Part shown: positions 12,531 to 14,031 of the stretch, piece by piece
How the letters are laid out: the number at the start of each line of letters is the position of its first letter
Position numbering within the stretch: the stretch's first letter is position 1
NCBI GenBank assembly: GCA_028687035.1
Contig: JAQUAX010000005.1
Location: forward strand, 164,672-228,671
Origin: Dechloromonas sp.
GTDB lineage: Bacteria > Pseudomonadota > Gammaproteobacteria > Burkholderiales > Rhodocyclaceae
DNA length: 64,000 bases
Direction of reading: 5' to 3'
Notes under the pieces: model-generated
Told to the model about the DNA's origin: nothing
Databases searched by the model: none
The model's input: the letters and a program-made list of their open reading frames with translations, nothing else
Position numbers and translations under genes: made by a program

Positions 12531-13154
12531 ATGCAACTCGACTCATTGATCACCGAATTCGATCGGGCCTTGCGGACTCTTGCTGCGCCGGCCAGAAGTG
12601 TCCGGCCGCATCCGGATTCGGATGTCCCGGAGGTGCCGCTCGATCCCGATCAGCGACGCCATGCCGCTGCGCTGATGCGCATCAACCACTGCGGAGAAGT
12701 TTGCGCCCAGGCTCTGTATCAAGGGCAGTCGCTGACCTCGCGAAATCCTGCGGTCAGGGATGCGCTGCGCTCGGCGGCTGACGAGGAGACGGAGCACCTG
12801 GCCTGGACGGAGCGGCGAATCGCCGAGCTGGGGGGGCGCACCAGCCTGCTCAATCCGTTGTGGTATCTGGGCTCACTGGCGCTGGGGGTCGGTGCCGGCA
12901 TCCTCGGCGACAAATGGAACCTTGGCTTTCTCGCTGAAACCGAACGGCAGGTGGAGGCCCATCTGGAAGGGCATTTGAGCAGCCTGCCCGCCTCGGATGC
13001 GCGCTCGCTGGCGATCGTCGATCAGATGCGGCGGGATGAGATCGCTCATGCGGAAACCGCTGTTGGTTTCGGCGCCGCTGAATTGCCGGCCCCGGTGAAG
13101 GCTGGCATGCGCCTTGCCGCTGCGGTGATGACCCGGACGGTCTATCGCATCTAA
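12531..13154 (+). CDS. coq7: Demethoxyubiquinone hydroxylase Coq7
   Basis: [60 protein letters not shown] di-iron motifs. Confidence 0.93.
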
Positions 13155-13608: not shown

Positions 13609-13860
13609 TTTTTTCTCCTTCAAAGAGCGCGAATTCTAACGGATATCGGATGTTGCCTCGGCGTGGGGGTTGGGCTCGATTGCTGCGCTGCATCAAAAGG
13701 CATTCTGGTGAAGGTGGGTTTGGCGTGGGCAATCGTGGTTCATTAATCAAATATAGATTAATTTGTTTTGTAAAAAAATGTTTAAATACAGTTAATTGAA
13801 TGTTATAAAAAATACGTATCTAACGATATTTTCGACGATTGTGCGTCGCACAAAAAAATC

Positions 13861-13889
13861 TTGATCAGTGTTTGGTGTTGGTGCACAAT
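13861..13889 (+). promoter_or_regulatory. Sigma70-type promoter for the sRNA candidate (TTGATC - 17 bp - CACAAT)
   Basis: -35 TTGATC at 13861-13866, -10 CACAAT at 13884-13889, 17-bp spacer, in an AT-rich intergenic region. Confidence 0.6.
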
Positions 13890-13895
13890 GAGAAC

Positions 13896-14003
13896 TGTTG
13901 GGACTGAAGTAGCTAAGCGATGGCTTCTCCAGTTCAGATTTGTCTCCTCCACCCTCCTCCTTTGGTGTGGATTTAACGCGGCTCAGCGAGCCGCGTTTTT
14001 TTT
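13896..14003 (+). ncRNA. Candidate small RNA with anti-Shine-Dalgarno, CU-rich region and Rho-independent terminator
   Basis: Promoter at 13861-13889; 5' hairpin GGACTGAAGTAGC/GCTTCTCCAGTTC (13901-13935); unpaired TCTCCTCCACCCTCCTCCTTT (13943-13963); terminator at 13975-14003. No plausible ORF. Confidence 0.65.
13975..14003 (+). terminator. Rho-independent terminator
   Basis: AACGCGGCTC-AGC-GAGCCGCGTT, a perfect 10-bp stem, followed by TTTTTT. Confidence 0.9.
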
Positions 14004-14031
14004 CGGGTGGTCGCCAGAGAGTGTCAGGCCA

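What the first reader, a model, noticed from the sequence alone, without database searches (positions are those of the whole stretch)
13861..14003. Unannotated small RNA candidate that mimics the 16S rRNA anti-Shine-Dalgarno sequence
Seen directly: a promoter with exact 17-bp spacing (TTGATC-N17-CACAAT), a predicted start near 13896, an imperfect 5' hairpin (13901-13935), a CU-rich unpaired stretch TCTCCTCCACCCTCCTCCTTT, and a perfect 10-bp terminator with a T-run. CCTCCTTT at 13956-13963 equals the usual 3' end of bacterial 16S rRNA (CACCTCCTTT), so the RNA could pair with many ribosome-binding sites. Established knowledge: CU-rich anti-SD loops are typical of trans-acting sRNAs, and toxic anti-SD small RNAs have been described in Betaproteobacteria. 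Inference: this is a roughly 108-nt translation-modulating or toxic sRNA beside the L13/S9 ribosomal protein operon.
Basis: partly seen in the sequence, partly recalled or inferred. Interest (0 to 1): 0.72.

Follow-up and report, generated by a model that had tools for sequence, protein, structure and literature searches.

The report
Storage-granule-linked small RNA
The candidate is a real member of a known family of small RNAs that block ribosome-binding sites, and its promoter carries the binding site of PhaR, the protein that senses carbon-storage (PHB) granules, which suggests that full carbon stores switch on an RNA that turns down carbon uptake.

Summary
Window 13896-14003 is a small-RNA gene, and its 3' part (13941-14004) matches Rfam RF02278, Betaproteobacteria toxic small RNA (65.4 bits, cut-off 50), the family of B. 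cenocepacia ncS03/05/27/62 and B. pertussis S17. By homology the working RNA is probably a ~63-nt processed form. The anti-SD octamer CCUCCUUU sits in a hairpin loop, and the main seed is the free 5' end UGUCUCCUCC. "Toxic" describes overexpression in E. coli. L13/S9 is a syntenic neighbour, not evidence of ribosomal control. New here: 8 bp upstream of the -35 box is TTGTGCGTCGCACAA, the only perfect copy in the 3.3-Mb genome. It matches the footprint-derived PhaR consensus TGCRNYGCASMA; related sites precede three phasin genes and phaR in the same genome. The consensus lies upstream of the sRNA in 84/118 homologues against 0.4% of control windows, and in 54/78 phaR+ genomes against 0/29 phaR- genomes, mostly centred at -51 or -31. 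I propose that PhaR represses the sRNA until PHB titrates it away. I found no report of this link. PhaR binding and sRNA expression are untested.

The parts
13839..13853 (.). Predicted PhaR operator TTGTGCGTCGCACAA, centred at about -51 from the predicted start
   Evidence: Only perfect TTGTGCRNYGCACAA site in the 3.3-Mb genome; fits the PhaR consensus TGCRNYGCASMA; a matrix made from other species' sRNA promoters scores it 24.6, equal to the best phasin-promoter site of this genome, against at most 10.5 in three shuffled windows
13861..13866 (+). -35 element TTGATC
   Evidence: Sequence; aligned promoter positions in relatives
13884..13889 (+). -10 element CACAAT, 17-bp spacer
   Evidence: Sequence
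13896..13940 (+). 5' leader of the primary transcript with a hairpin (basal helix 13901-13906/13930-13935); predicted to be removed by processing
   Evidence: Fold; covariation at 4 of 6 basal pairs in 20 relatives
13941..14003 (+). Predicted mature sRNA, RF02278 member
   Evidence: cmscan 65.4 bits, positions 1-64 of 64; 5' end placed by homology with S17S and short homologues
13941..13950 (+). Site 1 seed UGUCUCCUCC, single-stranded 5' end
   Evidence: Fold; nearly invariant in 38 distant homologues; Site 1 of S17S
13948..13971 (+). First hairpin; loop 13955-13963 UCCUCCUUU holds the anti-SD-like octamer CCUCCUUU 13956-13963 (Site 2)
   Evidence: Fold
13975..14003 (+). Intrinsic terminator: 10-bp stem, 3-nt loop, T-run
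   Evidence: Fold; covarying terminator stem in homologues
12531..13154 (+). coq7, syntenic gene upstream
   Evidence: NF033656
13180..13608 (-). OsmC family protein, upstream syntenic gene
   Evidence: NF008009
14109..14939 (+). rplM-rpsI (L13/S9), downstream syntenic operon, not part of the sRNA unit
   Evidence: TIGR01066 and NF001099

Best explanation
This is an RF02278/S17-type trans-acting sRNA. Transcription from about 13896 gives a ~108-nt RNA, which is cut at about 13940/13941 to a ~63-nt stable form with two anti-SD-like seeds, a free 5' end and a hairpin loop. With Hfq these pair over ribosome-binding sites and block translation of transport and catabolic genes. Its promoter is held down by PhaR bound at 13839-13853. 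Shown here by computation: family membership, architecture, the operator-like site, its sharing with phasin and phaR promoters, its fixed position, and its co-occurrence with phaR. Inferred: transcription, processing, Hfq use, targets, PhaR binding, and the sign of control.
For: RF02278 above its cut-off. Conserved coq7-osmC-sRNA-rplM-rpsI locus. Covarying 5' hairpin and terminator. PhaR encoded in the genome: TIGR01848 over its cut-off, Pfam PHB_acc_N and PHB_acc. Perfect palindrome only at this promoter, no match for the reversed control pattern. Same motif upstream of phasin genes (two in tandem, one elsewhere) and, more weakly, of phaR. Published PhaR consensus TGCRNYGCASMA, and the betaproteobacterial PhaR orthologue PhbF with a footprinted TGC/GCA motif and repressor activity. 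Motif in 84/118 homologue promoters against 20/4952 control windows. Motif in 54/78 phaR+ against 0/29 phaR- genomes, p = 6e-12; by family majority 13/19 against 0/10, p = 4e-4. Motif centres cluster at -51 and -31, two helical turns apart. NcS27-type RNAs rise in biofilm, starvation and glucose medium, and overexpressed NcS27 slows growth on several amino acids and carbon sources.
Against: No expression or binding data for this organism. 24 of 78 phaR+ genomes lack the strict motif, and in families f39, f43 and f48 none of the sampled phaR+ genomes has it. At -51 the site lies upstream of the -35 box, so activation is not excluded. phaR loss and motif loss follow lineages, and within-family contrasts are few (f4, f10, f36). 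ncS27 expression has not been tied to PHB in the literature I could read.
Confidence: 0.78

Rival explanations
1. An RF02278 sRNA whose upstream palindrome is bound by another regulator, or by PhaR acting as an activator; the sRNA rises in growth arrest for other reasons.
For: The -51 position is compatible with an activator; in B. diazoefficiens some genes with PhaR boxes fall in the phaR mutant; phaR+ genomes without the motif exist.
Against: 0/29 phaR- genomes keep the strict motif; the same motif lies at phasin and phaR promoters of this genome; in many homologues it overlaps the -35 box (-31 class), a repressor position; PhbF repressed both promoters tested.
Confidence: 0.15
2. One reading: a toxic or general translation-modulating RNA that works by mimicking the 16S 3' end and acts with the ribosomal-protein operon beside it.
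For: CCUCCUUU is identical to the 16S 3' end of the genus; family members inhibited E. coli growth when overexpressed; rplM-rpsI adjacency is widely conserved.
Against: S17S overexpression did not impair E. coli exponential growth, and S17 affects 92 genes rather than translation at large; the loop octamer is not conserved in all homologues, e.g. L248, L233 and L240, while the 5' end is; some homologues are next to coq7 or elsewhere, without rplM.
Confidence: 0.05
3. A dual-function transcript that also encodes the 18-aa peptide MASPVQICLLHPPPLVWI (13920-13976).
For: The ORF is open and overlaps both seeds; S17L also has a small ORF.
Against: Only 15 of 120 homologues have start and stop in this frame; a nearby in-frame ATG is found in 17, against 28 and 18 in the other two frames.
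Confidence: 0.02

Closest known systems
Betaproteobacteria toxic small RNA, Rfam RF02278 (B. cenocepacia ncS03, ncS05, ncS27, ncS62 'double-hairpin RNAs')
   Same: 65.4 bits over all 64 positions; two hairpins; CU-rich free 5' end and loop; a leader in front of the processed form as in ncS27
   Different: Stem variant CCACC/GGUGUGG; the PhaR-type operator described here; expression not tested
B. pertussis S17 / S17S
   Same: Site 1 and Site 2 seeds, long form with leader before the same 5' end, coq7 neighbourhood
   Different: Leader is about 45 nt here against 123 nt in S17L; S17 lies directly next to coq7, here osmC lies between; BvgA-linked expression is specific to Bordetella
Neisseria NmsRB, Rfam RF02877
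   Same: CU-rich anti-SD-like seeds in a similar arrangement
   Different: 28.4 bits against a gathering score of 52
Sinorhizobium MmgR
   Same: An sRNA in PHB metabolism reported to be negatively controlled by AniA/PhaR
   Different: Alphaproteobacterial, different sRNA family, targets phasins; RF00519 (suhB/mmgR) scores only 15.4 bits here against 41
PhaR/PhbF regulon (H. seropedicae, R. eutropha, B. diazoefficiens)
   Same: TGC-N3-GCA operators at phasin and phaR promoters; repression described
   Different: I found no report of an RF02278 sRNA among its targets

Membership tests
RF02278 Betaproteobacteria toxic small RNA | Covariance-model score at or above the gathering score of 50 | tested here: met
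   65.4 bits, positions 1-64 of 64
RF02278 Betaproteobacteria toxic small RNA | Two hairpins with a CU-rich 5' end and loop, second hairpin a terminator | tested here: met
   Fold, alignment
RF02278 Betaproteobacteria toxic small RNA | Expressed RNA that inhibits E. coli growth when overexpressed | not testable with these tools
   Needs RNA and growth experiments; a relative, S17S, barely inhibited growth
S17 (B. pertussis) | Conserved Site 1 and Site 2 seeds and syntenic position | tested here: met
   Seeds present; coq7-osmC neighbourhood; S17 next to coq7
S17 (B. pertussis) | RNase E processing and Hfq dependence | not testable with these tools
   Inferred by homology only
PhaR regulon | PhaR consensus site at the promoter | tested here: met
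   TGCGTCGCACAA at 13842-13853
PhaR regulon | PhaR encoded in the genome and sharing its site with phasin and phaR promoters | tested here: met
PhaR regulon | PhaR binds and changes transcription | not testable with these tools
   Needs EMSA and a phaR deletion
NmsRB RF02877 | Score at or above gathering score 52 | tested here: not met
   28.4 bits

The most novel reading that the evidence does not exclude
The RF02278/S17/NcS27 family is, across most PHB-storing Betaproteobacteria, the RNA arm of the PhaR regulon. PHB granules titrate PhaR, which releases an anti-SD sRNA that represses carbon uptake and catabolism, so storage status feeds back on translation. PhaR would then be a candidate for the unidentified repressor of the S17 promoter.
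Probability: 0.7. Interest if true: 0.72.

Novelty: new member of a known kind. Interest (0 to 1): 0.56.

Why it matters
RF02278 sRNAs are widespread in Betaproteobacteria, with several copies per genome in some lineages, but what switches them on is not established: the 2017 B. cenocepacia study noted a common upstream motif without naming a regulator in its main text, and the S17 study postulated an unidentified repressor. A PhaR operator would tie the RNA to a concrete signal, PHB granule content, and give one explanation for its rise in glucose medium, biofilm and growth arrest. It would also give betaproteobacterial PHB producers a riboregulatory arm, a subject called undeciphered for C. 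necator in a 2021 review. The prediction is easy to test.

Tried and rejected
18-aa ORF: not conserved. Second own-genome RF02278 hit (C11:11858, 36 bits): below cut-off and lacks the CCTCC seeds. Bp1_781, NmsRB, ncS16 and suhB matches: all below cut-off. Own 16S 3' end: not found in the assembly. Target search GGAGGAGAC-N1-9-ATG: 8 sites against 0 for the reversed control, which is not clean evidence because the string is itself an SD sequence. The sites include a fadD-like acyl-CoA ligase, strong in a relative of the same family and weaker or absent elsewhere; a fatty-acid ligase, BP2811, is an S17 target predicted to be conserved in Aromatoleum. Structural alignment of the first hairpin over 38 homologues did not resolve (one search gives only the terminator), so its covariation was not scored. 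Literature: no paper found that links RF02278, NcS27 or S17 with PhaR; Kimelman 2012 was not held, and Sass 2019 on NcS27 and the supplements were not read.

Full report
What was checked. The 63-nt 3' part folds with z = -5.3 and the 108-nt transcript with z = -3.75. cmscan places 13941-14004 in RF02278 at 65.4 bits over a cut-off of 50, so the gene is a family member. Above-cut-off hits were found in 114 of 300 genomes of the window's order; in a sample of the wider class, the only three genomes over the cut-off were this one and two others of the same order.

Anatomy. The exact 30-mer TGTCTCCTCCACCCTCCTCCTTTGGTGTGG occurs in at least 120 other stretches of genome contigs, most of them from named Betaproteobacteria such as Thauera, Azoarcus, Aromatoleum, Dechloromonas, Zoogloea and Herbaspirillum. 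In 38 distant homologues the 5' end GTCTCCTCCA is nearly invariant while the terminator varies and covaries. Upstream of it there are two designs. Most loci, like the window, have a promoter some 30-60 nt upstream of TGTCTCC and a leader between; in the window's relatives the leader folds into a hairpin that covaries at 4 of 6 basal pairs. About a dozen loci have the promoter directly upstream, with a predicted start on TGTCTCC itself. B. pertussis S17L is cut by RNase E at that point to the stable 67-nt S17S, and ncS27 is processed to a similarly short form. The mature RNA here is therefore predicted to be 13941-14003. The locus order coq7, osmC, sRNA, rplM, rpsI, whole or in part, is kept in most of the 150 loci examined; S17 is also next to coq7, so these are probably orthologous loci.

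How it acts. In the mature RNA the free 5' end (Site 1) and the loop (Site 2, holding CCUCCUUU) are single-stranded in the predicted fold. In B. pertussis, 92 genes rise without S17, 70 of them with complementary sequences at or near the ribosome-binding site, and direct repression of a sigma-54 regulator was shown with reporter fusions. NcS27 overexpression slows growth on several amino acids and carbon sources. The same action is inferred here, not shown.

What controls it. The palindrome TTGTGCGTCGCACAA ends 8 bp before the -35 box. It is the only perfect TTGTGCRNYGCACAA in the genome, and the reversed control pattern gave no match at up to 1 mismatch. TGCGTCGCACAA fits TGCRNYGCASMA, the footprint-derived consensus of Bradyrhizobium PhaR. 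The betaproteobacterial PhaR orthologue PhbF has a related footprinted motif with TGC and GCA triplets and represses phaP1 and its own promoter. The genome encodes PhaR. A matrix made only from other species' sRNA promoters finds, in this genome, two sites before a tandem pair of phasin genes (24.6 and 15.5), two before another phasin gene (21.2 and 20.4), two before phaR (17.9 and 10.7) and one before an NDP-forming CoA ligase (22.5), compared with 24.6 at the sRNA and at most 10.5 in three shuffled windows. The weaker phaR site is at the level of the shuffled maximum and is not counted on.

Statistics. The consensus is within 170 nt upstream of the sRNA in 84 of 118 loci and in 20 of 4952 other windows of the same loci. 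Centres cluster at -51 and -31 from the predicted start; 85 of 93 instances fall between -60 and -31, and four loci carry sites near both positions. In a partly overlapping sample of genomes, 54 of 78 phaR+ genomes and 0 of 29 phaR- genomes have the motif; by family majority 13 of 19 against 0 of 10. Lineage confounding remains: few families contain both states, phaR+ families without the motif exist, and one phaR- genome (G123) is only 85% complete. Two coq7-linked homologues carry TTGCAT-N17-TACTAT, the elements published for PS17, with the motif overlapping the -35 box. The S17 authors postulate an unidentified repressor there. That this is PhaR is inference; the B. pertussis sequence itself was not examined.

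Verdict. The sRNA is a known kind of thing. The proposed PhaR control is new as far as the readable literature goes. The nearest precedent is AniA/PhaR control of MmgR in Sinorhizobium. No transcript, binding or phenotype has been measured for this organism.

Noticed in passing
window 13679-13697: A second, weaker PhaR-like site (matrix score 14.9) about 70 bp upstream of the osmC start, on the divergent side of the same intergenic region; osmC may share the control.
   Followed up: no
G374, G375, G452, G463:C83, G495:C27, G580:C3: Sub-threshold RF02278-like hits (30-49 bits) in other families of the wider class, some in tandem (two or three copies within about 300 bp); possibly a wider family than Rfam describes.
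   Followed up: no
L031, L053, L103, L112: Promoters of homologues with two PhaR-type sites 18-20 bp apart (about -51 and -31).
   Followed up: partly
G000:C22:56784, G000:C15:109176, G000:C13:25507/25587: PhaR-type sites before an NDP-forming CoA ligase, a MaoC-domain gene and, as a pair, a UvrD-like helicase gene: possible further PhaR targets.
   Followed up: partly
L002 1501-1558 (G000:C11:11858): Weak second RF02278 match (36 bits) upstream of another gene; strong terminator but no CCTCC seeds, probably unrelated.
   Followed up: partly
window 13920-13976: An 18-aa ORF MASPVQICLLHPPPLVWI overlaps both seeds; not conserved.
   Followed up: yes
G007, G056, G178, G269: Genomes with 7-9 RF02278 matches each, some in tandem: large paralogue sets of this sRNA in one family (f8).
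   Followed up: no
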